Assembly (NCBI GenBank): GCA_900318145.1
Contig: ONJM01000001.1
Span: 248,001 to 312,000 of the forward strand
Direction: 5' to 3'
Source of the DNA: an uncultured Eubacteriales bacterium
Lineage (GTDB): Bacteria; Bacillota; Clostridia; Christensenellales; Aristaeellaceae
DNA length: 64,000 bases
This document shows, in pieces, positions 32,217 through 64,000 of this stretch; the first letter of the stretch is position 1; each line of letters begins with the position of its first letter. A program made the translations under genes and the position numbers. The notes beneath the pieces are model-generated. The model had not been told where the DNA came from, did no database searches, and saw nothing but the letters and a program-made list of their open reading frames with translations.

Positions 32217-32375
32217 TGTTCCAGTTGCACCTCCTGCCCGGTTCAGAATAAAGAAACCCTTGCGTGCAGGCGCAAGGGAATAAATACACAATTCACTTAC
32301 ACCTCGGCAGGCGGGAAAACCCTTTAAACCGCTTGGCGGTACCGGCTGTCTACGGCACGGCTTCTTCGAAACCGA
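32217..32375 (-). ncRNA. Ribosomal protein L10 leader (autoregulatory 5' UTR)
   Basis: About 160 bases of untranslated leader lie between the rplJ promoter and the start codon. On the minus strand it contains GGTACCGCCAAGCGG and the conserved CTGCCGAGG core typical of the L10 leader family. A hairpin, CCCTTGCG..CGCAAGGG (32257-32278), followed by TTTCTTTA could act as an attenuator. L10(L12)4 binding to such leaders is known to repress its own operon. Confidence 0.75.
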
Positions 32376-50227: not shown

Positions 50228-50245
50228 GAACCGATTCTGTATGCG

Positions 50246-50278
50246 AACAGCCCGGCCGGACGGCCGGGCTGTTTTAGT
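50246..50278. terminator. Bidirectional terminator between tpiA and the right glycan operon
   Basis: AACAGCCCGGCC (50246-50257) pairs with GGCCGGGCTGTT (50262-50273), then TTAGTATTTT. It ends tpiA and, read in reverse, the minus-strand operon. Confidence 0.85.
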
Positions 50279-50295: not shown

Positions 50296-50787
50296 TTACA
50301 GGTCCTGAGGCATATTCCGGATATACCCGCCCAGGAAACTGCTGCCGACCGCTCCGTATACCAGAAAGCGCGCGGTATCCAGTACAAGCGTCAAAGGTCC
50401 GTAATCCGTTTCTGCGGAAAGGAGAACCAGCTGCTTCCGTACCTTCCGATACTGAATATGCAGCTTTGCATCTTCGCAGCAGAGAAGGTTTCCGGCAAAC
50501 GTGCAGGGAAGGATCACATCCTGCGCAAACGCAATTTCGGCTGTCCAGCCGTCCAGGTCATGATCCGGCATTCCGGCATCCGTCCGGCAGGAGCAGAATG
50601 TATTTCCGGTATTCTGATCATGAAAAACAGGACCGTCCGCAGTGAGAAGCAAAAACGCTCCTTCTTCACATTTAATCCCGCACAGGATTTTTTCAGCAGG
50701 AACGCTTCCGTTCCATTCCGTACTCAGAGGCGGTGTATACGGCTTTTTCCCTTCAAGGATCCGTTGTATCAGCTGATTTTTATTCAT
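50296..50787 (-). CDS. Short unknown protein, last gene of the glycan operon, possibly one MoaF-like half
   Basis: A 163-residue cytosolic protein. It starts at ATG 50787 with AGGTG upstream; a GTG at 50796 overlapping the previous stop is possible. No signal peptide or membrane segment. The segment TDYGPLTLVLDTARFLVYGA resembles the beta-strands VTFVLDMEQSLVTS of the larger MoaF-like neighbours, so it may be a single beta-barrel unit of that family. Several cysteines (FCSCR, LLCCEDA) are present. The family assignment is weak. Confidence 0.7.
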   Translation of the reverse strand: MNKNQLIQRILEGKKPYTPPLSTEWNGSVPAEKILCGIKCEEGAFLLLTADGPVFHDQNTGNTFCSCRTDAGMPDHDLDGWTAEIAFAQDVILPCTFAGNLLCCEDAKLHIQYRKVRKQLVLLSAETDYGPLTLVLDTARFLVYGAVGSSFLGGYIRNMPQDL

Positions 50788-50792
50788 AGGCG

Positions 50793-51662
50793 TCACCTGA
50801 TGTATTCCGTACTTGCCCGGGCAAGCAGGTCATACGCGTCATAGTATTCCCCAAAGGCTCCGTAGGTATAGTTTTCCGGGTTTCCGGTATCACCGCTGTG
50901 GCCGAAGGAGCGGCCTACGTCATGCATTCTGTTCAGGTTCATCAGGAAGAACAGATTGTTGCCCTGTCCCCGTTCACGGCAGGCCAGTTCTTCATTGGCA
51001 TTGAAAATGTAGATACCTTCTTTTACCTTGATATAATCACCGGGTTCTTCATACAGGCGGATTTCATCCAGTTTCTGACGTTCCCGGAAGGCTTCTGTAT
51101 TGATCGGCTCCCTGCCGATAAAATCTTCCTTCGCAATGGTCAGCCTGTAGTAATGTTCACTGGAATAAACATGCACAACTCCCATACGCCCGTAGCGCCA
51201 ATGGATTGCCTTGCCGACCAGATCGGCAGTATATCCATGGCGGATTGAAGGAACAGAACCGTCTTCCCGGCGGATTGCGCCGAAGATGATCCTGCTGACC
51301 GGCATTTTCGGCCATTTCGGATTGACTCCGATCGTGACGATATTGGATGTGACAAGGCTCTGCTCCATGTCCAGCACAAATGTGACGCCGGTCCGGGGGA
51401 CAGCACCGGTTTTTTCAAAATTGACAAAATAGGTATCGTCATCCGCCTTCAGGCAGTCATAGGCATATTCCTTTTTGTCCTCATCCGACCGGCCGTATGT
51501 CAGAACGCAGCGGCTGATAAAGTTCAGTTCATATTCATACCCGTCATCCATTACCAGAACAAACTGCTTTCCTGCAAGCTCAAAACAAAGGGGCGGCCGG
51601 TACTGGCTCATGCCTTCAAACACAGGCGGTTCGGGAAGTTTTCTTCTGACTGTTTCATCCAT
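50793..51662 (-). CDS. MoaF-like beta-barrel protein, paralogue 1
   Basis: A 289-residue cytosolic protein behind AAAGGAGG. Two similar halves can be seen. The N half has LAGKQFVLVMDDGYEYEL and VTFVLDMEQSL. The C half has LVGKAIHWRYGRMGVVHVYS, then HYYRLTIA, YIKVKEGIYIF and FFLMNLNRMHDVGRSFG. This matches the two-part organisation of MoaF-type calycin proteins (MoaF and its C-terminal domain). It is clearly a duplicate of the gene upstream at 51694. No enzymatic role is established for the clostridial forms; a ligand-binding or small-molecule enzyme role is inferred. Confidence 0.75.
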   Translation of the reverse strand: MDETVRRKLPEPPVFEGMSQYRPPLCFELAGKQFVLVMDDGYEYELNFISRCVLTYGRSDEDKKEYAYDCLKADDDTYFVNFEKTGAVPRTGVTFVLDMEQSLVTSNIVTIGVNPKWPKMPVSRIIFGAIRREDGSVPSIRHGYTADLVGKAIHWRYGRMGVVHVYSSEHYYRLTIAKEDFIGREPINTEAFRERQKLDEIRLYEEPGDYIKVKEGIYIFNANEELACRERGQGNNLFFLMNLNRMHDVGRSFGHSGDTGNPENYTYGAFGEYYDAYDLLARASTEYIR

Positions 51663-51693
51663 AGTGCAATCCTCCTTTTACAATCAGCCGGGT

Positions 51694-52551
51694 TCAGTGG
51701 ACAAAAAACAGGCTTGGTTTTGCCAGGGTTTCTCCGGCGTCATAATCTTCTCCGAAGGCGCCGAAAACATAGTTTTCATTCTCACCCTGATCGTTTGTAC
51801 CGAAAGAACGGCCCACATCGTGCATGGTGTTCAGATTCATCAGGAAAAGCAGACTGTTGCCATGCCCTCTGGAACGGCACAGCTGTGTTTCCAGAAGACT
51901 GACCAGATACAAGCCGTCTTTGATTTTAATATATGCCGCATAATCTTCATAAGCACCCCGCCGCGGGCCCGAATCCGGATCAGTTCCATCCGCCCGCATC
52001 CGTTCCCGCATCCTTTCCATCCGCCGCGGAGAGAAGGCAACCCGGTAATACCTCTCACTTGAATACACATGCACCACATCGAATGTACCGTAATTCCAGT
52101 TGATTGCCCGGCCGACCAGATCGGGTGTGTAACCATGACGGACAGAAGGCGCTGCACCTTCGCTGTTCAGAATACCGCCAAAGACAAAGCGGATTGCCGG
52201 CATTCGGGGGTACTTCGGATCCTGGCCCATGCTGGCTATGGCAAGGGTGGTCAGGCTTTGATCCAGATCAAGTACAATCGTATAGCCGATTCGCGGAAAA
52301 ACGCTTTCCTGTTCAAAATTAATGAAGAAAGTGTTTTCTTCCGGCTTCAGGCAATCGTAGCGGTAACGGCCGGGAGCAGTATCCGCTTTGCCGAAGAGCA
52401 GCGTATCATTGTCTGTCAGTTCCAGCTGCCGGATGTAACCGTCATCCATCTCCAGCAGGAAGCGCTTTCCTGTCAGCTCATGGCAAAGAGGCGGGCGGAA
52501 AATGGACATGCCTTCAAATTTTTCAGGTTCCGGGATCTTTTGCTGATTCAT
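51694..52551 (-). CDS. MoaF-like beta-barrel protein, paralogue 2
   Basis: A 285-residue cytosolic protein behind AAGGAG. It shares with paralogue 1 the opening EKFEGMSIFRPPLCHELTGK, the block RHGYTPDLVGRAINWNYG, HVYSSERYYR and the end block FLMNLNTMHDVGRSFG. An Arg/Met-rich insertion (RRMERMRERMRADG) separates the halves of the C-terminal domain. It lies between GH31 and paralogue 1 in the operon, with 31-51 base gaps. The high similarity of the pair points to tandem duplication. Function unknown; MoaF relation by pattern. Confidence 0.75.
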   Translation of the reverse strand: MNQQKIPEPEKFEGMSIFRPPLCHELTGKRFLLEMDDGYIRQLELTDNDTLLFGKADTAPGRYRYDCLKPEENTFFINFEQESVFPRIGYTIVLDLDQSLTTLAIASMGQDPKYPRMPAIRFVFGGILNSEGAAPSVRHGYTPDLVGRAINWNYGTFDVVHVYSSERYYRVAFSPRRMERMRERMRADGTDPDSGPRRGAYEDYAAYIKIKDGLYLVSLLETQLCRSRGHGNSLLFLMNLNTMHDVGRSFGTNDQGENENYVFGAFGEDYDAGETLAKPSLFFVH

Positions 52552-52602
52552 GGTCTGCTCCTTATTATCAGTATTCAGAAACCAAAGGCATTCCTGAGCG
52601 GA

Positions 52603-55032
52603 TCAGATACGGATCGTGACAGCTTCACCGGTATAACGGACAACTGTTTCTTTTCCGCACATCCGACAGATGCGCAATTCTTTTTCCGCGGGCATGTTTT
52701 CCCATGTGCCTTCCCGGGCGGAAACAGTCAGTTCTCCCGACAAATCATTCCAGGTGAAGCGGATAACGGAATACTCGCCTTTCTCATATCCGTAACCGTC
52801 TCCGGCATCTTCATACAGGCTGAATGTTCCGTCCGCGCCGGGACAGACGATTACGGTCAGCGGCGGATTTGGATTTTCATTCACGTACTGCTGCACGGGA
52901 CCCAGCGGCAGAATTGCGCCGGAACGCAGGAAGACCGGCACTGTCTGAAGCGGCGCATGCACGCGGACACATTGACCGCCTGTATACTTTTCTCCGCTGT
53001 CCCAGGCGTACCAGTCCGTTCCGGCCGGCAGACACACTGTTTCCATGTCGTCCGGAACATCGACTTTCCGGCTGCCCGGCAGGTATTCCATTGGCCGGGT
53101 TACAGGCTTTACAAGCATTATGCCGCCCAGCAGCATTTCGTCATCAATCCGGTACAGGGTACGGTCCTGCGGAAAATCAAGCGCGGGGAAGCGAACCATG
53201 GGCAGACCTTCCCTGGTATAGACGGAAGCAATGGAATAGAGAAAAGGAACCAGACGGCTGCGCAGGCAGATTATTTTTTCCAGCGCGTCATACCAGGGAT
53301 CCCCTTTTTCTCCGAAGCGCCAGATTTCTCTGGGTGTGCCTGTGCCGTGGGCGCGCATCATCGGCAGGAAGGCAGCAAACTGCATCCAGCGGACAAACAG
53401 CTCACGGAATCCAAAGTCATCGACACCTTTATTGAATTCGCCCGCTCCGAACCAGGCACCGCCGAAGTCCATCGGGAAAAAGCCGCCCGCGTCCGTAGTC
53501 CAGTAATTTTCGCCCGCAGCCATAAAGTTCATGCCTTCCGGTACCTGCCGACGCAGTGTTTCCCAGGAGGAGCTTACATCACCGGACCAGGTAACGGTGG
53601 CATACCGGTGCTGCCCAGCCCAGGAAGAACGCGTCAGGTTCAGAACGCGCTTCCGGACGGATGCTTTTCGCTGGCCCTGGTAGATGCCCATGGAATGATA
53701 CAGACTGTAAAGACTGATCCGGCCGGGGTCAAGGTATTTCTTCGCTTCATCGGTGTTCAGCCTCACGCGCTCGAAAGGCTCCGGCTTGATCCGGCCGTGC
53801 CAGTCGGATTCAAAGGGTTCAGAACAATCGCACCACCAGGCGTCTACTCCGCAGCGGAACAATCCTTCATCCGCCTGCTTCCAGTACAGTGCGCGGGCGC
53901 CTTCGTCAAAAGCGTTATAGATTGTACGGTTGCCGAGCATGAAGCCGTTTTCCAGCATTTCTTCGCGGTTTTCATTCCTGTCTCCCTGCATGGACGGCCA
54001 GATTGAGATCATCATCTTTGCACCGAGCGCATGCAGTTCATCGGTCAGCGCCTTCGGATCCGGAAAACGTCCGGGGTCAAAGGTTTTGTAACCCCACTGT
54101 CCTTCCGGCCAGGACTGCCAGTCCTCCACGATTACATCCAGAGGAACCTTCCGGCGCCGGTATTCCTTTACAACGCTGATCAGTTCTTCCGCATCCCTAT
54201 AGCGCTCCTTGGACTGGACATAGCCAAAGGCATAACGGGGCAGGAGCGGCGCGGCACCGGTCAGCGCCCTGTACTGACGGTACACATCAGGACAGCCGCC
54301 TGCCATGAAATAATAATCCGCTTCGTCCGCACAGTCCGCCCAGAGATAGGATCCCGCAGCGTCGTCATGGAAAATCATCAGGCAGCCCATATCAAACAGG
54401 ATGCCCCAGCCCTTTGCGGAAACCAGGAAGGGAACAACCGCTTTCATATTATGCTGATACAGATCTCTTGTTTTTCCCCGCAGGCTGCCATACCCTTCCT
54501 CATGGGAGCCGAGGCCGTAAAGCGCCTCATCCGGATCAAAATCGAAACTTATTTTAGCTGTATAGGCACGGCGTGCTTCAAAAGTTTCATAATCATCCGC
54601 GGAAGCGCGTACGCCATCCACGCTTTCAGAATAGCGGATCTGCGCGTCCCGGGAAAACCGGTTGACCATCACAGGCTTTTCTTCAAGCACACAAGGTCGT
54701 TTTTCCTGTTCCCGGAGGATTACGCTTCCGGACTTGTCCAGGAAAGCAATACTGCCGGTTTCCTTTGCGACCCGGACCCTGACATTCCCGCAGTCTGCCA
54801 GATATTCACTGGCGGTTTCCGTTACGCAGCATGTTCCGGGAGCTGCGGAAACAACCACAGGGCTTTCCGAGTCCAGGAAAGCATCCCGCAGCGTGCGGGT
54901 GATCCGTACAGCGCCGCAGGAAAGAGAAGCTACCCGAAGACGCAGAATCTCCGGCGGGCATCCCGGGCGGGTGGGAATCGGAAAAAGAAATTCAGCGGCG
55001 TTTTCCGAGATTATATTCATTTTATTGACCAT
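52603..55032 (-). CDS. GH31 alpha-glycosidase, alpha-xylosidase-like, cytosolic
   Basis: An 809-residue enzyme without signal peptide; AAAGGAG lies nine bases before the ATG. An N-terminal beta-sandwich (about 1-240) with ALYGLGSHEEGYG precedes the barrel, which opens with PRYAFGYVQSKERY. The nucleophile Asp is in DAWWCDCSEPFE (about 402) and the acid/base Asp in VTWSGDVSSSWETL (about 485). The WWxDxSEP form is closest to bacterial alpha-xylosidases that trim xyloglucan or related oligosaccharides. C-terminal beta domains follow (EYLPGSRKVDVP, YEDAGDGYGYEKGEY). Alpha-glucosidase activity cannot be excluded. Confidence 0.92.
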   Translation of the reverse strand: MVNKMNIISENAAEFLFPIPTRPGCPPEILRLRVASLSCGAVRITRTLRDAFLDSESPVVVSAAPGTCCVTETASEYLADCGNVRVRVAKETGSIAFLDKSGSVILREQEKRPCVLEEKPVMVNRFSRDAQIRYSESVDGVRASADDYETFEARRAYTAKISFDFDPDEALYGLGSHEEGYGSLRGKTRDLYQHNMKAVVPFLVSAKGWGILFDMGCLMIFHDDAAGSYLWADCADEADYYFMAGGCPDVYRQYRALTGAAPLLPRYAFGYVQSKERYRDAEELISVVKEYRRRKVPLDVIVEDWQSWPEGQWGYKTFDPGRFPDPKALTDELHALGAKMMISIWPSMQGDRNENREEMLENGFMLGNRTIYNAFDEGARALYWKQADEGLFRCGVDAWWCDCSEPFESDWHGRIKPEPFERVRLNTDEAKKYLDPGRISLYSLYHSMGIYQGQRKASVRKRVLNLTRSSWAGQHRYATVTWSGDVSSSWETLRRQVPEGMNFMAAGENYWTTDAGGFFPMDFGGAWFGAGEFNKGVDDFGFRELFVRWMQFAAFLPMMRAHGTGTPREIWRFGEKGDPWYDALEKIICLRSRLVPFLYSIASVYTREGLPMVRFPALDFPQDRTLYRIDDEMLLGGIMLVKPVTRPMEYLPGSRKVDVPDDMETVCLPAGTDWYAWDSGEKYTGGQCVRVHAPLQTVPVFLRSGAILPLGPVQQYVNENPNPPLTVIVCPGADGTFSLYEDAGDGYGYEKGEYSVIRFTWNDLSGELTVSAREGTWENMPAEKELRICRMCGKETVVRYTGEAVTIRI

Positions 55033-55102
55033 CCGGAAGGTCTCCTTTCAGCATTGTCTTTTACTTCATATTCGTTTTGTTTCCGGCTGACCGGCGGTTT
55101 CA

Positions 55103-55924
55103 TCATACGGTATTGGGACTGGGAGCCGCTTCCGTTTCCAGACATCCGGTATATATTTTTCCTTCAGCGTGGATAAATCCCCAGGCCCGAAGACCGGAGG
55201 GGAGACGGACAAAATTACGTCCGATATCCTGCATTGAGTCCAGATCCATCAGCAACAGCAGATTACTGCCGCCCCTGTCCGGATTTCTGCGGTTGATACG
55301 CTCTTCCGTGACGCCCATCAGATAAAGGTTTTTCCGGATTTTTACATAAACCGCCGGTTCTTCGTAGATGGGATCATCCACCAGGGGCGAAGTATCTCCG
55401 TCGGGACGCCTGAGCGCCTGGGCACGGCAGAAATGATCCAGGTAGATATGCGCGTTTACAAAACCGTTGTAATAGGTCCAGGCGATTTTTTTACCTGTCA
55501 GTTCACAGGTGAAGCAGTGCCGCCGCCAGGCAAGATCCTTTCCTTCGCGCTTCACGGCGCCGAAAGTATATTCCGTCTTCGCAAGATTCGGCCGGGCCGG
55601 ATACGCCCCGAAGGTTGTGACAACCCGGGTCACCAGATCACTGTCCTCGTCGATCACCAGCACAACGCAGGTAAGCGATCCGGAGGAAGGCAGTTCATAG
55701 GCCAGCATGCGTACCGTCTCCCGAATGGTCAGGCTGCCGTAACGCAGCCACAGCGGAGAACGGTTTCCGCCGTACAGGACCAGATCTTCCCCTGTGGGGA
55801 AGGAGTACAGCTCTTCCTCACCGGAATCATAACAGATATGCAGCGAGGTGCCGGCCAGGCGGTAATCCAGGGTGCGGATAAAACGTTCGTCACCGGTAAA
55901 ATGAATGCCGTTCGCGAAAGGCAT
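55103..55924 (-). CDS. MoaF-like beta-barrel protein, paralogue 3 (divergent)
   Basis: A 273-residue cytosolic protein behind AAGGAGG. The MoaF-like plan is visible: FIRTLDYRLAGTSLHICYDSGEEELYSF, then TCVVLVIDEDSDLVTR, FTCELTGKKIAWTYYNG, AHIYLDHFCRA, YEEPAVYVKIRKNLYLMG and LLLMDLDSMQDIGRNFV. It is more distant from paralogues 1 and 2 than they are from each other. It sits between GH95 and GH31. No metal or cofactor motif is obvious. Function unknown, family by pattern. Confidence 0.73.
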   Translation of the reverse strand: MPFANGIHFTGDERFIRTLDYRLAGTSLHICYDSGEEELYSFPTGEDLVLYGGNRSPLWLRYGSLTIRETVRMLAYELPSSGSLTCVVLVIDEDSDLVTRVVTTFGAYPARPNLAKTEYTFGAVKREGKDLAWRRHCFTCELTGKKIAWTYYNGFVNAHIYLDHFCRAQALRRPDGDTSPLVDDPIYEEPAVYVKIRKNLYLMGVTEERINRRNPDRGGSNLLLLMDLDSMQDIGRNFVRLPSGLRAWGFIHAEGKIYTGCLETEAAPSPNTV

Positions 55925-56021: not shown

Positions 56022-58439
56022 TCAGAATTTCAATTCGATTTCCGCTGTTTCCCCTTCAGTGAAAATGACTTCAACATGATCGCCATCCATCGGAAGCTCT
56101 TTACCGTTCACAAAGAGCCGGCATCCCGGACGGCGGCAGCGCAGTGTAAGCGTCTGGGCTTTCCCGGACGTCAGGCTCGCATGCGCTCCATTTTCATTCC
56201 AATCCAGATGGTTCAGTTTTGCGAAGGTGTACAGCCAAACGCCGTCAATGGCGCCTTCCGCCAGACTGTCCGGAACCGCGGGCAGGAATTCCACGATACC
56301 GGGCATGCTGAATACGCTCATTTCCACCAGGAAGGCAGGTACGGCGCCCTGCAGATCCGGGAATACACCTCTGTAAGGGAAGTGGCTGGTTTGCAGGGTA
56401 CGGCGGACAAATCCATGGCAGAACAGCTGACTCAGATTCTGCTCGGCCTCCTCTTTATCCTTCAGGCGGATGGCCGTAAAGGCACGGTGGATAATGCCGT
56501 GGGCTGAGTCATCCTGCTGGCCTCTTTTCCGGTTGGAAATGATGATCGCTTCGGTCAGAGCGGGCTCGGTTTCAGGTGTAATCGCACGGCCGGGCCATAC
56601 GTCGTAATGATGGGATACATGCCGGTGATTGTAGTTTTCGTCGATGGTCGGCCAGGCCCACTCCTTCAGGCCGCCTTCACGGTCCAGCAGATAGGTGGGC
56701 AGGGAAGCCAGCTGTTCCTCCCAATGGGGAATGTTTTCCGTCTCAATTCCAAGTGTCCTGCACCCGTCGATCAGGTTGGTCAGGATTTCACGGCAGATGG
56801 CGATATCCATCACGGAATTGATGCGGGTCGGATTGATGCTGCTGCAGGTAACGGTTTCGTAACCGGGATTGGGCGTGGGGTCTTCCGGCGAGAAGGACGG
56901 ATAAAAGATGACCTTTCCGTCCGGGCCCCGGTCACAGGCATAGTCTTCGAAGAACAGCGCCATTTCCTTGTAGGCGGGAATCACGCGGTCCCGGAGGAAT
57001 TCCTTATCACCGGTTACCAGGTAATAGCCCCACAGCTCATTGTAGATCCAGCCAAGGCATCCGGTCCAGCAGTAATGGGGATAGGTACGGGAGAAATGAT
57101 AATACAGGCCGGAATCCGGATCGCAGTGGACGCTGGCAAGCAGACCTCTCGCGCCGAAGAGCAGCCGGGCGTTCGTACGGAAATCATCAAATTTCGTTTC
57201 ATAGTAACGGAAGTATACGTCCATTTCGTCGAACAGGCCGGTATTGTTTCCGGCACAAACCTGCAGGTTTGTGTTGATATTGTGCTGGCCCATCATGGGC
57301 GGCAGCGCGCCGGTTTCATAAATCTGGAAGAAACGCCCCATATCGTAGAGCTTTTCCATCAGCGTCGGATCGATTTCGTTTTCGCTGTGGGAGCGGCGGA
57401 GCAGTTCTTCACCGGACAGGACATAGTCCTCCTTCTTTCCGAGATGAATGCGGGAACGGTCCATTTTTTCGCCGATGATCCGCTGATTCGCGGCCAGCAT
57501 TCCGTCAAAGTCCGCCGGCATTTCCATCAGCTCCCGGGTAACCTGATCCGCGCAGGCGAATGTGAAATCACTCTCAAACTTAACGATTTTACTCAAAACG
57601 ATCAGTCCGTCAGCACCGGACAGGCGCACGCCCTTTTCGGTTTTTTCCGTTTTTCCGCCGGCGGGAATGAAACGGACGGCGGCTACATATCCCTTATGGC
57701 CGAATTCGGGACGGTATGCCCAGGCCAGGGTGATCAGCTGATCGGTAATATTCAATTCATGGGTACTGCCGACAAACGGCTGCTTAAACACCATGTTGCC
57801 ATGGCGGAAAGGCTTGCCGGGCAGTTCGATTTCCACATCCAGGTCCAGCAGCCCCTTCGGTGCGGTAAAGCGGTTTACAATCACTCCGCCTTCATACGCG
57901 GCGAAGCTTTCCGTACGGAAGTCTCCGCGGCTGTTGGTCCAGACGGAGGTGATCATACCGTTCTGCATATCCAGCCAACGGAGGTAATTCCGGGTATCGG
58001 GCTGCTCCGGCTGCCGGAAGGTGAGCCAGAACGCCGTGTGCAGGCGGGGAGAACCGGTCGGATACAGAATCTTGTTGTCAAAATTCATATACTTGTCGAA
58101 TCCGGCCTTTTTCTGGGCTTCGTCGATCAGCGCGTCCGTCTCTTCCGGTTTGCCTTCCAGCAGGAGTTCCCTGATGCGGGGAAGATACGGCCGCAGATCG
58201 GGCGGCAGAGGCGTTTTTTCCCAGAGGGGTTCGTAGAGCGTTTCCTGGGTATAGGACATCTCATCGCTGTAGGGACGGCCGGAGACCTGAATGCGCAGGC
58301 TGCCATTGCCGGTGATGAAATAATCGGAGGGTTCATCGGCCGGAGAGATGGAGCAGATGCTGTGCTCGGGCAGCAGCCCGGCGCGCTTTTCCGCCGGGAT
58401 ATACGGATAAGGATAGGAGAGCTTTGAATAATCAATCAT
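56022..58439 (-). CDS. GH95-family glycosidase (alpha-L-fucosidase/galactosidase type), cytosolic
   Basis: About 805 residues from ATG 58439, nine bases after GAGGG; an ATG at 58448 touches that site. There is no signal peptide. The N-terminal beta domain (about 20-270) carries the EGKPEETDALIDEAQ segment. The (alpha/alpha)6 barrel has HNINTNLQVCAGN, the catalytic glutamate region PSFSPEDPTP, RHVSHHYDVWPG and QQDDSAHGIIHRAF. The C-terminal beta domain ends in LTLRCRRPGCRLFVNGKEL. The family cleaves alpha-L-fucose or alpha-L-galactose from plant glycans. A second family member begins at the right edge. Substrate not decided. Confidence 0.85.
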   Translation of the reverse strand: MIDYSKLSYPYPYIPAEKRAGLLPEHSICSISPADEPSDYFITGNGSLRIQVSGRPYSDEMSYTQETLYEPLWEKTPLPPDLRPYLPRIRELLLEGKPEETDALIDEAQKKAGFDKYMNFDNKILYPTGSPRLHTAFWLTFRQPEQPDTRNYLRWLDMQNGMITSVWTNSRGDFRTESFAAYEGGVIVNRFTAPKGLLDLDVEIELPGKPFRHGNMVFKQPFVGSTHELNITDQLITLAWAYRPEFGHKGYVAAVRFIPAGGKTEKTEKGVRLSGADGLIVLSKIVKFESDFTFACADQVTRELMEMPADFDGMLAANQRIIGEKMDRSRIHLGKKEDYVLSGEELLRRSHSENEIDPTLMEKLYDMGRFFQIYETGALPPMMGQHNINTNLQVCAGNNTGLFDEMDVYFRYYETKFDDFRTNARLLFGARGLLASVHCDPDSGLYYHFSRTYPHYCWTGCLGWIYNELWGYYLVTGDKEFLRDRVIPAYKEMALFFEDYACDRGPDGKVIFYPSFSPEDPTPNPGYETVTCSSINPTRINSVMDIAICREILTNLIDGCRTLGIETENIPHWEEQLASLPTYLLDREGGLKEWAWPTIDENYNHRHVSHHYDVWPGRAITPETEPALTEAIIISNRKRGQQDDSAHGIIHRAFTAIRLKDKEEAEQNLSQLFCHGFVRRTLQTSHFPYRGVFPDLQGAVPAFLVEMSVFSMPGIVEFLPAVPDSLAEGAIDGVWLYTFAKLNHLDWNENGAHASLTSGKAQTLTLRCRRPGCRLFVNGKELPMDGDHVEVIFTEGETAEIELKF

Positions 58440-58470
58440 TTGTTTCATCCCTCACTCTTTATGAATTCCC

Positions 58471-60231: not shown

Positions 60232-61182
60232 TCATCCCTTCAGGGCGCCGATCATGACGCCTTTGGTGAAATACTTCTGCAGGAAGGGATACACGCAGAT
60301 GATGGGCAGAACAGATACGATGATGGTGGAGTATTTCAGCAGCATACGGGTGGCCTGGTCCTCACCGGAACGGTTGCTGGCTCCGGAACCAGCCGCGGCG
60401 GACATATCATTGTTGATCAGGATCTGGCGCAGCACCATCTGCAGGGGCTGCTTCTTGCTGTCACGGATATACAGCAGCGCATTTGTCCAGCTGTTCCAGT
60501 ATCCAACCACGATGAACAGGCTGATGGCCGCAATGGTGGGAACGATCAGCGGAATGAGAATGCGGGTAAGGATGACGACATCGTTCGCACCGTCCAGTTC
60601 CGCGCTTTCCGTCATCTCTTTTGGCACGCCCATGATGGAAGTCCGCAGGATGATCACATAATAGGTGCTGATCAGACCGGGCAGAATCAGGGCCCACAGG
60701 GAATCGATCAGACCAAGATCGTTTACGATCAGATAGGTGGGGATCATACCGCCGCTGAAGTACATGGTGAAGACAGCCGCGAAGGTGAAGAAACTGTGCA
60801 GCATACTGTCCTTTTTGCTAAGTACGAAAGCGAACAGCAGCGAGGCGATCAGCGTGCAGGCAGTACCAACGGTGGCGAGGAACAGCGTTACCAGATAACC
60901 TGTCCAGATGGAACGGTAATTCAGAACGAACTGATAGCCCTTTAACGAAAATCCCAGCGGATGCAGGAGCAGTCCGGAATGTGAATACAGCTTCAGCGGA
61001 TTGCTCAGAGAGGCAAAAAGTACATAGAGGAAGGGATACAGGGTAATAATCATCAGGAACAGCATAAAGAGCACGTTGACGACGTCGAAAACCTTGCTGC
61101 CGGTGGAAGGCCGGCCGTAGGTCCACTGCCCTTTCCAGTGCCCGTTGTCATGCGGGTTTTTTTCGATAACCTTCTTCTTCAT
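60232..61182 (-). CDS. Carbohydrate ABC transporter permease (YtcP/MalG type)
   Basis: A 316-residue permease with six helices and a basic N-terminus (MKKKVIEKNPHDNG). The EAA loop reads MTESAELDGANDVVILTRI (about residues 215-233) and the C-terminus FLQKYFTKGVMIGALKG is diagnostic of the LplC/YtcP subfamily. It lies 15 bases after the partner permease and 66 bases before the binding protein. GGGGAGGGG lies before the ATG. Confidence 0.92.
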   Translation of the reverse strand: MKKKVIEKNPHDNGHWKGQWTYGRPSTGSKVFDVVNVLFMLFLMIITLYPFLYVLFASLSNPLKLYSHSGLLLHPLGFSLKGYQFVLNYRSIWTGYLVTLFLATVGTACTLIASLLFAFVLSKKDSMLHSFFTFAAVFTMYFSGGMIPTYLIVNDLGLIDSLWALILPGLISTYYVIILRTSIMGVPKEMTESAELDGANDVVILTRILIPLIVPTIAAISLFIVVGYWNSWTNALLYIRDSKKQPLQMVLRQILINNDMSAAAGSGASNRSGEDQATRMLLKYSTIIVSVLPIICVYPFLQKYFTKGVMIGALKG

Positions 61183-61197: not shown

Positions 61198-62142
61198 TCA
61201 CCACAGCGACACGTCGCTGAGCTTGCGACTCAGGGCGTTTACGCCGATCAGCAGGATGAAGTTAAACAGGGAGTTGAACAGGCCAACGGCTGTGGCGTAG
61301 CTGTAATTGCCTTGCTGCAGACCGTAGCGGTAAACGAAGGAAGAGATAACGTCGGCCGTTTCATAGATGGTTTCATTGTAGAGCAGGATGATCTTTTCAA
61401 AGCCAAGGCTCAGCATATTGCCGACGCGAAGGATCAGCATGATGATTACCGTGGGTAGGATTCCGGGAATGGTGACGTGGATTACCCGGCCGAAACGGCT
61501 GCAGCCGTCAATGGCGGCCGCGTCATAAAGCTCGGCGTCCACACCGCCCAGTGCGGAAAGATAGATGATGGAGCCATAGCCTACGCCCTGCCAGATGCCT
61601 GTGCCCACATAAAGCGGCCGGAAGAAGCCGGCATCCTGCATGAACAAAACTTTACTTCCGCCGAGTGCTTCGATGATCTGGTTAATCACACCGCTGGAGG
61701 AGAAGAAGTCCAGGATGATGCCGCATACGACCACCATGGAAATGAAATGGGGGAGATATGTGACGGTCTGCACCGTGCGCTTGTAGGCGGAGGAACGGAG
61801 CTCATTGAGCAGCAGCGCAAGAATAATCGGCGCAGGGAATCCGAAGAGCAGGTCCAGAACATTGATCAGCAGCGTGTTGCGCAGCAGCCGCCAGAAGTAA
61901 TAGCCGTTAAAAAACTGATCGAAATACTTATACCAGGGATCTGCCCATTTGCTGCCCCAGATGCCGCGGGCCGGGCGGAAATTCTTGAACGCGATCACAA
62001 TGCCGCCCATGGGAAGATAGCAGAAAATAATGTAATAGCTCAGGCACAGAAAACCAATCAGATAAACCAGCCAATACCGCTTCCAGTCTCTTACAATACG
62101 CTGGCCGAAAGATCTGCGGGGTATAATGCTGTTGGTGGTCAT
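61198..62142 (-). CDS. Carbohydrate ABC transporter permease (LplB type)
   Basis: A 314-residue permease. It starts at ATG 62142, five bases after GGAGG; the GTG at 62154 lies within the site. Six helices follow (YWLVYLIGFLCLSYYIIFC is the first). The EAA loop is LYDAAAIDGCSRFGRVIHV, and the end NALSRKLSDVSLW is typical of LplB proteins. It pairs with the downstream YtcP-type gene. Together they differ from the left pair, so the two loci probably import different sugars. Confidence 0.92.
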   Translation of the reverse strand: MTTNSIIPRRSFGQRIVRDWKRYWLVYLIGFLCLSYYIIFCYLPMGGIVIAFKNFRPARGIWGSKWADPWYKYFDQFFNGYYFWRLLRNTLLINVLDLLFGFPAPIILALLLNELRSSAYKRTVQTVTYLPHFISMVVVCGIILDFFSSSGVINQIIEALGGSKVLFMQDAGFFRPLYVGTGIWQGVGYGSIIYLSALGGVDAELYDAAAIDGCSRFGRVIHVTIPGILPTVIIMLILRVGNMLSLGFEKIILLYNETIYETADVISSFVYRYGLQQGNYSYATAVGLFNSLFNFILLIGVNALSRKLSDVSLW

Positions 62143-62197
62143 TAACCCCTCCACCTCCTTATTTTGTACCTTGTTATGGATCAGAATGATCTGCGGA

Positions 62198-62598: not shown

Positions 62599-64000
<1,402 letters not shown>

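What the first reader, a model, noticed from the sequence alone, without database searches (positions are those of the whole stretch)
50296..55924. Three MoaF-like beta-barrel proteins interleaved with plant-glycan hydrolases
Genes at 50793, 51694 and 55103 encode related 273-289 residue proteins with two similar halves each, and 50296 may encode a single half. They alternate with GH31 and GH95 in one operon that also encodes a feruloyl-esterase-like enzyme and a flavin protein. MoaF proteins are poorly understood; calycin-like barrels include phenolic acid decarboxylases. I infer a cytosolic system that handles a phenolic or modified-sugar group freed from imported hemicellulose fragments. 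The link to phenolics is a hypothesis.
Basis: partly seen in the sequence, partly recalled or inferred. Interest (0 to 1): 0.75.

Follow-up and report, generated by a model that had tools for sequence, protein, structure and literature searches.

The report
MoaF proteins resemble phenolic-acid decarboxylases
A bacterial gene cluster pairs plant-sugar enzymes with three copies of a poorly understood protein (MoaF) whose second half keeps the key acid residue of enzymes that break down plant phenolics, which suggests a testable job for MoaF.

Summary
Confirmed: genes 50793, 51694 and 55103 encode two-domain MoaF-family proteins (MoaF3 is below the Pfam cut-offs) in one minus-strand run with GH31, GH95, a CE1 esterase, a NimA-like flavoprotein and an ABC importer. 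The 50296 gene is a small conserved protein, seen only beside MoaF (9 of 9 loci).

The predicted MoaF1 structure matches the solved Burkholderia MoaF, then 24 consecutive phenolic acid decarboxylase (PAD) chains, with modest TM-scores. Profile alignment puts the PAD catalytic Glu on E224 (Glu in 45 of 45 rows) and its phenol-binding Tyr pair on W155/Y157 (aromatic 45 of 45; Tyr 44 of 45). The carboxylate-binding Arg has no counterpart. In nine plasmid loci opened, MoaF is beside an SDR in 7 and near 4-hydroxyphenylacetate, amine or phenol genes in 5.

Best reading: MoaF is a cofactor-free acid/base enzyme for para-hydroxyphenyl compounds, acting through a quinone methide, probably not a plain decarboxylase. 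Here a MoaF1/MoaF2 pair (old paralogues) would process a phenolic freed by the esterase from imported oligosaccharides. Homology and residue conservation are shown; substrate and reaction are inferred.

The parts
50245..50274 (+). 13-pair terminator-like hairpin between tpi and the end of the MoaF gene run; listed on the + (tpi) strand only, that it also ends the minus-strand run is inferred
   Evidence: Longest stem of 14 terminator-like sites; the total is no more than in shuffles (mean 13.3)
50296..50796 (-). half: 166-aa protein of a new conserved family, start overlaps the MoaF1 stop by 4 bp
   Evidence: 9 loci, each time within 32 bp of a MoaF gene on the same strand (those loci were fetched for MoaF); 2 of 297 order genomes, both beside MoaF
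50793..51662 (-). MoaF1, 289 aa, two PAD-like domains; W155, Y157, E224 in the C-terminal one
51694..52551 (-). MoaF2, 285 aa, old paralogue of MoaF1 (52% identity); keeps W, Y and E
52603..55032 (-). GH31 (alpha-xylosidase / alpha-glucosidase type), no evident signal peptide by eye
   Evidence: PF01055 278.8 bits
55103..55924 (-). MoaF3, 273 aa, divergent member, orthologue in L029 (73%); keeps W, Y and E
56022..58448 (-). GH95
   Evidence: PF22124 167.1 bits
58534..60165 (-). probable extracellular solute-binding protein (signal-like N-terminus by eye, beside two permeases)
   Evidence: No Pfam family over cut-off; L029 relative has weak DUF3502; role inferred from position
60232..61182 (-). 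ABC importer permease
   Evidence: PF00528 22.6 bits, just under the cut-off 26.4
61198..62154 (-). ABC importer permease
   Evidence: PF00528 55.3 bits
62198..62596 (-). NimA/NimC-like flavoprotein, 132 aa
   Evidence: PF01243 47.6 bits; 2ig6 E 2e-48 by profile; a relative lies within 1.2 kb of MoaF in 8 of 30 loci and 6-10 kb away on the same strand in 3 more, the window among them
62599..63759 (-). CE1-type (feruloyl-esterase-like) esterase, 386 aa, no evident signal peptide by eye
   Evidence: PF00756 52.6 bits; aligned to the esterase part of NF041944, E 2e-53, under its full-length cut-off

Best explanation
The MoaF proteins are two-domain relatives of phenolic acid decarboxylase (PAD). 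The C-terminal barrel is the active one. An aromatic-x-Tyr pair (W155, Y157) holds and activates the para-OH of a 4-hydroxyphenyl substrate, and E224 acts as general acid/base at the side chain, forming a quinone-methide intermediate without a cofactor, as in PAD. Because the PAD arginine that holds the carboxylate is missing and acidic residues lie in that segment, the reaction is more likely elimination, addition or isomerisation on the side chain than plain decarboxylation. The N-terminal barrel lacks the residue set and is structural, perhaps standing in for the second subunit of a PAD dimer. In this operon the ABC importer brings in acylated oligosaccharides, cytosolic GH95/GH31 and the CE1 esterase take them apart, the MoaF1/MoaF2 pair with the small half protein converts the freed phenolic, and the NimA-like flavoprotein reduces the reactive product. 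Shown: fold match, remote homology, conserved residues, old MoaF1/MoaF2 pair, cassette conservation. Inferred: every catalytic step, the substrate, and the roles of half and flavoprotein.
For: Foldseek of the MoaF1 model: ranks 1-2 MoaF 4q51 (E 1e-13), ranks 3-26 all PAD chains at probability 1.00, E 2e-4 to 1e-2. hhalign to 8 PAD rows: C half 83-92%, E about 1e-6, score 44.8 against at most 20.6 in 100 column shuffles; N half 54-79%, score 35.0 against at most 18.1; reversed PAD and the NimA alignment score 10-16. The alignment pairs E224 with PAD Glu64 and W155/Y157 with Tyr11/Tyr13. Over 45 MoaF rows E224 is 45 of 45 (most conserved column), Y157 44 of 45 (second), aromatic at 155 45 of 45: W 33, Y 7, F 5; the seven proteobacterial rows have Y (4) or F (3) there. 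In PADs the Glu is the general acid and the Tyr pair binds the p-OH (passages of PMC10176493), and E72A, Y19F or Y21F of the Enterobacter enzyme (same places) abolish hydration and nucleophile addition (passage of PMC5488193). Nine plasmid loci opened of 42 records: SDR directly beside MoaF in 7; 4-hydroxyphenylacetate/homoprotocatechuate genes in 3 (Roseateles, R. etli, Agrobacterium); Cu amine oxidase and a PheA/TfdB-type monooxygenase in Paenarthrobacter; monoamine regulator and arylsulfatase in Klebsiella. MoaF1 (10 rows) and MoaF2 (8 rows) each form one clade, 100/99. No canonical PAD in 0 of 245 class genomes, this genome included; 2 of 14 controls rang.
Against: PAD Tyr11 is Trp in 33 of 45 rows, all three window copies included, and Phe in 5, although Tyr-to-Phe there abolishes hydration by the Enterobacter enzyme; the phenol pocket cannot be identical. 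Arg41 is not conserved. Structural similarity to PAD is modest (TM-score by target length 0.47-0.56, rmsd 3-10 A). A profile of the nine plasmid MoaF rows alone aligned best with PAD through its N half (55.5%, E 1.2e-4), not its C half; the combined 46-row profile went back to the C half (86%). Four of the nine plasmid loci (Azoarcus, Arthrobacter, pZM21, B. arboris) showed no aromatic-catabolism gene. In the clostridial loci none was recognised among the neighbours scanned, apart from esterases and flavoproteins. CE1-like genes occur in 6 of 30 loci and NimA-like ones in 11 of 30; in G104, G743 and G392 the NimA-like gene lies elsewhere. MoaF is rare: 6 of 297 order genomes and 6 of 391 class genomes, G000 counted in both. 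3D distances between the residues could not be measured. The half shows no PAD-like sequence (0.2%).
Confidence: 0.42

Rival explanations
1. MoaF proteins are non-catalytic binders (lipocalin-like) that carry, buffer or sense a hydrophobic or phenolic ligand, handing it to the SDR or flavoprotein partner.
For: Avidin-type barrels follow the PADs in the structure list (agroavidin from rank 28, E 0.026 and worse); multiplied and fused copies (L049 four genes, fused proteins of about 590-600 aa) would suit a binding role; the small half protein lacks the residue set.
Against: The most conserved column of all is a Glu at the PAD general-acid place (45 of 45); that a mere binder would fix it so strictly seems unlikely (inference).
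Confidence: 0.25
2. True phenolic acid decarboxylase: MoaF turns ferulate or p-coumarate freed by the esterase into vinylphenols.
For: PAD-like fold and catalytic Glu; CE1 esterase in the same run; no canonical PAD in the class sample (0 of 245).
Against: No PF05870 match; the carboxylate-binding Arg is absent and the segment is acidic (at least 2 acidic residues in 40 of 45 rows); Tyr11 is Trp here.
Confidence: 0.12
3. MoaF acts on a sugar, for example an oxidised (keto) sugar or a C-glycoside, as lyase or isomerase in a glycan pathway.
For: Clostridial partners include Gfo/Idh/MocA dehydrogenase and amidohydrolase-2 (L021), amidohydrolase-2, arabinose-isomerase-like, GH28, PfkB and a xylose-isomerase-like barrel (L018), GH31/GH95 (window).
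Against: The nine plasmid loci opened show no glycan-degradation gene (an annotated sugar phosphate isomerase/epimerase lies about 10 kb away in Azoarcus; B. arboris is unannotated and only ten of its ORFs were scanned); the aromatic pair resembles a phenol site.
Confidence: 0.15
4. Molybdenum cofactor biosynthesis, as the PDB title and many record annotations say.
For: Names only.
Against: No molybdopterin gene among the neighbours annotated or scanned; the Klebsiella locus is annotated with a monoamine regulator, arylsulfatase and MoaE (gene name fabG).
Confidence: 0.01

Closest known systems
MoaF (Pfam PF10703/PF17409; PDB 4q51, Burkholderia cenocepacia; Klebsiella moaF)
   Same: MoaF1 and MoaF2 are members by Pfam cut-offs; 4q51 is the top structural match, 275-276 alignment columns; conserved C-domain Tyr and Glu
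   Different: Three paralogues in one gene run, with sugar enzymes and a NimA-like flavoprotein instead of an SDR; Trp for the first Tyr; 18% identity to 4q51
Phenolic acid decarboxylase (PF05870; BsPAD 2p8g/4alb, FDC_Es 3nx1)
   Same: Next best fold in the list; catalytic Glu and second Tyr retained at aligned places
   Different: No PF05870 match; no Arg41; Tyr11 replaced by Trp in 33 of 45 rows; two fused domains instead of a homodimer of single ones
NimA/NimC-family flavoprotein (2ig6)
   Same: The 132-aa neighbour's alignment matches it with E 2e-48
   Different: Encoded with MoaF in this cassette; substrate unknown

Membership tests
MoaF (PF10703 + PF17409) | Score over both Pfam gathering cut-offs (MoaF1, MoaF2) | tested here: met
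MoaF (PF10703 + PF17409) | MoaF3 over the cut-offs | tested here: not met
   Only MoaF_C 15.5 bits, cut-off 22.1; relative of MoaF1 by BLASTP E 6e-20 and placed among MoaF rows in the tree
MoaF (PF10703 + PF17409) | Two-domain fold as in 4q51 | tested here: met
   Foldseek E 1e-13, TM 0.70-0.77 for the MoaF1 model; MoaF2 and MoaF3 were not modelled
MoaF (PF10703 + PF17409) | The 166-aa half belongs to MoaF | tested here: inconclusive
   No Pfam hit; best fold match 4q51 E 1.2e-3, next 5hal E 1.7e-3; profile match 11.5%
Phenolic acid decarboxylase (PF05870) | PF05870 match | tested here: not met
   None for any of the four proteins, none in the genome
Phenolic acid decarboxylase (PF05870) | Catalytic Glu64 | tested here: met
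   E224, 45 of 45 rows, aligned by hhalign; not checked in 3D
Phenolic acid decarboxylase (PF05870) | Tyr11/Tyr13 pair | tested here: inconclusive
   Y157 44 of 45; position 155 is W 33, Y 7, F 5
Phenolic acid decarboxylase (PF05870) | Arg41 | tested here: not met
   No conserved Arg at the aligned place
Phenolic acid decarboxylase (PF05870) | Decarboxylation of hydroxycinnamates | not testable with these tools
   Needs an assay
CE1 feruloyl esterase | Esterase domain PF00756 | tested here: met
   52.6 bits
CE1 feruloyl esterase | Curated feruloyl-esterase equivalog NF041944 | tested here: not met
   181 bits, cut-off 1200 for a longer bifunctional xylanase/esterase; only the esterase part aligns
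NimA/NimC flavoprotein | Profile match to a solved NimA/NimC-family protein | tested here: met
   2ig6 E 2e-48
NimA/NimC flavoprotein | Flavin bound, reductase activity | not testable with these tools
   Needs purified protein

The most novel reading that the evidence does not exclude
MoaF as a whole, Klebsiella MoaF included, is an unrecognised enzyme class: cofactor-free quinone-methide lyases/hydratases of 4-hydroxyphenyl compounds that share ancestry with phenolic acid decarboxylase but lack the carboxylate-binding Arg. In aerobic bacteria it would dehydrate or deaminate beta-hydroxylated tyramine-type amines (octopamine, synephrine, noradrenaline) towards 4-hydroxyphenylacetaldehyde. That would fit MoaF's place beside SDRs and hpa genes, and would give a candidate for the synephrine dehydratase activity (EC 4.2.1.88, recalled, no call). 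In ruminant Clostridia a duplicated MoaF1/MoaF2 pair has been moved into plant-glycan loci for acyl phenolics.
Probability: 0.2. Interest if true: 0.78.

Novelty: new variant of a known kind. Interest (0 to 1): 0.6.

Why it matters
MoaF was named in the Klebsiella monoamine regulon (recalled; one search shows a monoamine regulator in its locus) and is still often annotated as a molybdenum-cofactor protein. Four searches of an open-access library turned up no function for it in what I saw, though of the 70 papers with the word only 30 were listed and three were opened at their MoaF passages. Placing its two most conserved residues on the catalytic Glu and a phenol-binding Tyr of PAD gives a direct, cheap test of what it does. 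If right, it adds a phenolics branch to glycan-degrading operons of ruminant-gut Clostridia, in whose class no canonical PAD was found (0 of 245 genomes), and it points to a small conserved partner protein and a flavoprotein that may complete the reaction.

Tried and rejected
Rejected: molybdenum-cofactor role (no such gene among neighbours annotated or scanned, monoamine context in Klebsiella). Rejected: that the half is an ordinary MoaF half by sequence (11.5% with the N half, 1.3% with the C half, 0.2% with PAD). Rejected as a plain label: phenolic acid decarboxylase (PF05870 and Arg41 not met). Considered and left as a rival: sugar-directed chemistry.

Led nowhere: PHROGs scan of MoaF1 and the half (none); NCBIfam for MoaF1-3 (none; the half had 13.5 bits to a xylanase/esterase model, cut-off 1200, taken as chance); PF17409 in the window's own genome (no six-frame hit although MoaF1/2 pass as proteins, so the 2 of 398 phylum genomes are an undercount); paper searches for MoaF, the listed titles mostly unrelated uses of the letters; synephrine/octopamine gene clusters (nothing relevant in the listing); rumen ferulate papers (listing only). 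Papers opened, passages only: PMC8546723 (a LuxR solo represses an adjacent operon; a MoaF promoter construct is listed), PMC11540253 (uses 'moaF' for a fluoride transporter), PMC12322963 (a MoaF protein in a list), PMC10915792, PMC10176493 and PMC5488193 (PAD residues). Promoter scan no better than shuffles.

Rows left out: the fused MoaF proteins, fragments (L015, L028) and the L019 MoaF2 copy were not in the residue counts; the Azoarcus duplicate was dropped, 46 to 45 rows, and the B. arboris row there is only its C-terminal 112 aa, because the script cut at the first Met; both were left out of the tree (44 rows). L062 was dropped as the same contig as L021 (same length and genes). Of 42 plasmid records with a MoaF match I opened 9.
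Full report
WHAT IS THERE. On the minus strand the run reads CE1 esterase, NimA-like flavoprotein, two ABC permeases, a probable binding protein, GH95, MoaF3, GH31, MoaF2, MoaF1, half, with gaps of at most about 100 bp and a 4-bp overlap at the end. It goes on upstream of the window with a second GH95, 14 bp from the esterase gene. A 13-pair hairpin at 50245-50274, listed on the tpi strand, lies between the run and the convergent tpi gene; terminator-like sites as a whole are no more frequent than in shuffles. MoaF1 and MoaF2 pass both MoaF cut-offs, MoaF3 does not, and the half has no family. No MoaF gene beyond these three was found in the genome. The five other genomes of the genus in the order sample have none, so this looks like an accessory locus.

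FOLD AND HALVES. The MoaF1 model (29 rows, pLDDT 88.1, pTM 0.85) has two successive sets of strands. Foldseek against the PDB gives the Burkholderia MoaF 4q51 at ranks 1-2 (E 1e-13) and phenolic acid decarboxylases at all of ranks 3-26 (probability 1.00, E 2e-4 to 1e-2; TM-score by target length 0.47-0.56, rmsd 3-10 A), then a porin-like chain and avidins. The output does not say which half is aligned. By sequence profile the two halves resemble each other (hhalign 95%, E 6e-9). Each also resembles PAD: C half 83.4% or 91.8% with a trimmed template, N half 53.8% or 78.8%. None of 100 column shuffles of the PAD alignment reached the real score (44.8 against at most 20.6; 35.0 against at most 18.1), and a reversed PAD and the NimA alignment scored 10 to 16. 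A profile of the nine plasmid MoaF rows alone aligned best through its N half (55.5%); with all 46 rows the C half led again (86%). These E-values are for single comparisons.

THE ACTIVE-SITE RESIDUES. The alignment puts MoaF1 W155 and Y157 on PAD Tyr11 and Tyr13, and E224 on Glu64. In 45 rows (window, Clostridia, Azoarcus, Klebsiella, Paenarthrobacter, Arthrobacter, Roseateles, Rhizobium, Agrobacterium, Pseudomonas, Burkholderia) E224 is Glu in all 45 and is the most conserved column; Y157 is Tyr in 44 and is second; position 155 is W 33, Y 7, F 5. The seven proteobacterial rows read Y-x-Y (4) or F-x-Y (3), and W-x-E or F-x-E, close to the PAD Y-T-Y and W-T-E. All three window copies keep W, Y and E. 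In the N half the aligned pair is L36/M38 (Tyr at the second place in 5 of 45 rows), so that domain has no such site here. The PAD Arg41 has no conserved counterpart; 40 of 45 rows have two or more acidic residues in that segment. In PADs the Glu is the general acid, the Tyr pair binds the p-OH and the Arg the carboxylate (passages of PMC10176493 and PMC10915792; the latter says that two residue sets have been postulated). The Enterobacter enzyme also adds water and other nucleophiles to 4-hydroxystyrene by a quinone methide, and loses this when the Glu or either Tyr is changed (passages of PMC5488193). Hence the proposal of quinone-methide chemistry without the carboxylate handle. The Trp at the first place is the main residue-level evidence against identical chemistry. 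Rows are related, so the counts are not independent events.

THE CLOSTRIDIAL CASSETTE. One scan of genome contigs gave 13 relatives, 11 with titles that bear RUG codes or ruminant hosts (RUG as rumen genomes is recalled). Over 30 loci of the window's phylum (window included, L062 dropped as the same contig as L021; some loci share a genome), a NimA-like gene is in the locus in 11: within 1.2 kb of MoaF in 8, and 6-10 kb away on the same strand in the window, L017 and L029. The half is in 9 and a CE1-like gene in 6. The half is each time within 32 bp of a MoaF gene on the same strand, and 8 of its 9 loci also have the NimA-like gene; the ninth, L019, is cut at the contig edge. Six MoaF genomes have only 1-2 NimA-like genes of this kind each, so this closeness is unlikely to be chance (no formal test); in three of the six it lies away from MoaF. 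The half was found in 2 of 297 genomes of the order, both beside MoaF. MoaF1 (10 rows) and MoaF2 (8 rows) are each one clade with 100/99 support, sisters at 96/89: an old duplication kept as a pair. The surroundings vary: S33 hydrolase and GDSL genes (L022-L024), CE1 esterase (L022-L025) and a nucleoside phosphorylase (L023-L025) (families from L023); amidohydrolase, arabinose-isomerase-like, GH28 and, 6 kb downstream, GDSL (L018); Gfo/Idh/MocA with amidohydrolase-2 (L021); an S9 esterase and a MoaF whose extra N-terminus has a sub-threshold NmrA match (L027). L029 and L017 repeat much of the window's sugar and transport part.

ELSEWHERE. Nine plasmid-borne MoaF loci of 42 records were opened. 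An SDR is directly beside MoaF in Azoarcus, Klebsiella (MoaE, gene name fabG), Roseateles, R. etli, Agrobacterium, P. aeruginosa pZM21 and B. arboris, not in Paenarthrobacter or Arthrobacter YC-RL1. Roseateles, R. etli and Agrobacterium have hpa or 4-hydroxyphenylacetate hydroxylase genes close by; Paenarthrobacter has a copper amine oxidase and a phenol-monooxygenase-type gene; Klebsiella has a monoamine regulator and arylsulfatase. The other four show no such gene. The substrates of the five are mostly compounds with a para-hydroxyphenyl ring, which a PAD-like pocket would hold.

WHAT IS SHOWN AND WHAT IS NOT. Shown: genes, family, fold match, remote homology to PAD, residue conservation, cassette and paralogue conservation. 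Inferred: the reaction, the substrate, the roles of the half and the flavoprotein, and the cytosolic place of the esterase (no signal peptide seen by eye). The most economical account is a PAD-related acid/base enzyme for 4-hydroxyphenyl compounds. Here it would be tied to acyl groups on imported plant oligosaccharides.

NOVELTY. The family and fold are known; the mapping of the PAD catalytic residues onto the MoaF C-terminal domain and the NimA-MoaF2-MoaF1-half cassette were not found in print in searches of the open-access library (subscription papers, probably the original Klebsiella work among them, are not held). A shared Pfam clan of MoaF and PAD may already be catalogued (recalled, not checked).

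Noticed in passing
L049:4115-8102: Four MoaF genes in a row in genome G743, beside a MatE transporter.
   Followed up: partly
L058:8217-10010; L054:2631-4400; L055:8498-10228; L050:5092-7182: MoaF genes of about 580-700 codons, apparently two MoaF proteins fused head to tail; Pfam finds two MoaF stretches in L058 and L054.
   Followed up: partly
L027:10802-12043: MoaF with an extra N-terminus weakly like NmrA (NAD-binding), which echoes the SDR-MoaF adjacency in plasmid records.
   Followed up: no
L063:10919-11515: DUF3990 protein between the half and the NimA-like gene in G240; the same genome has MoaF1 on another contig (L062 = L021).
   Followed up: no
L077:6726-7118; L078:6746-7135; L079:6731-7120: A small NTF2-like protein follows MoaF in all three hpa-linked loci; it might play the part of the half there.
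   Followed up: no
L068:86-680: Selenomonas ruminantium plasmid pSRC2: canonical phenolic acid decarboxylase followed by an alpha/beta hydrolase, a possible precedent for an esterase-PAD pair.
   Followed up: no
window 32242-32373: Ribosomal protein L10 leader RNA (RF00557, 53.5 bits) on the minus strand, ordinary.
   Followed up: no
plasmid records: MoaF is often annotated as molybdenum cofactor biosynthesis F, probably a misnomer, since moa stands for monoamine in Klebsiella (recalled).
   Followed up: partly
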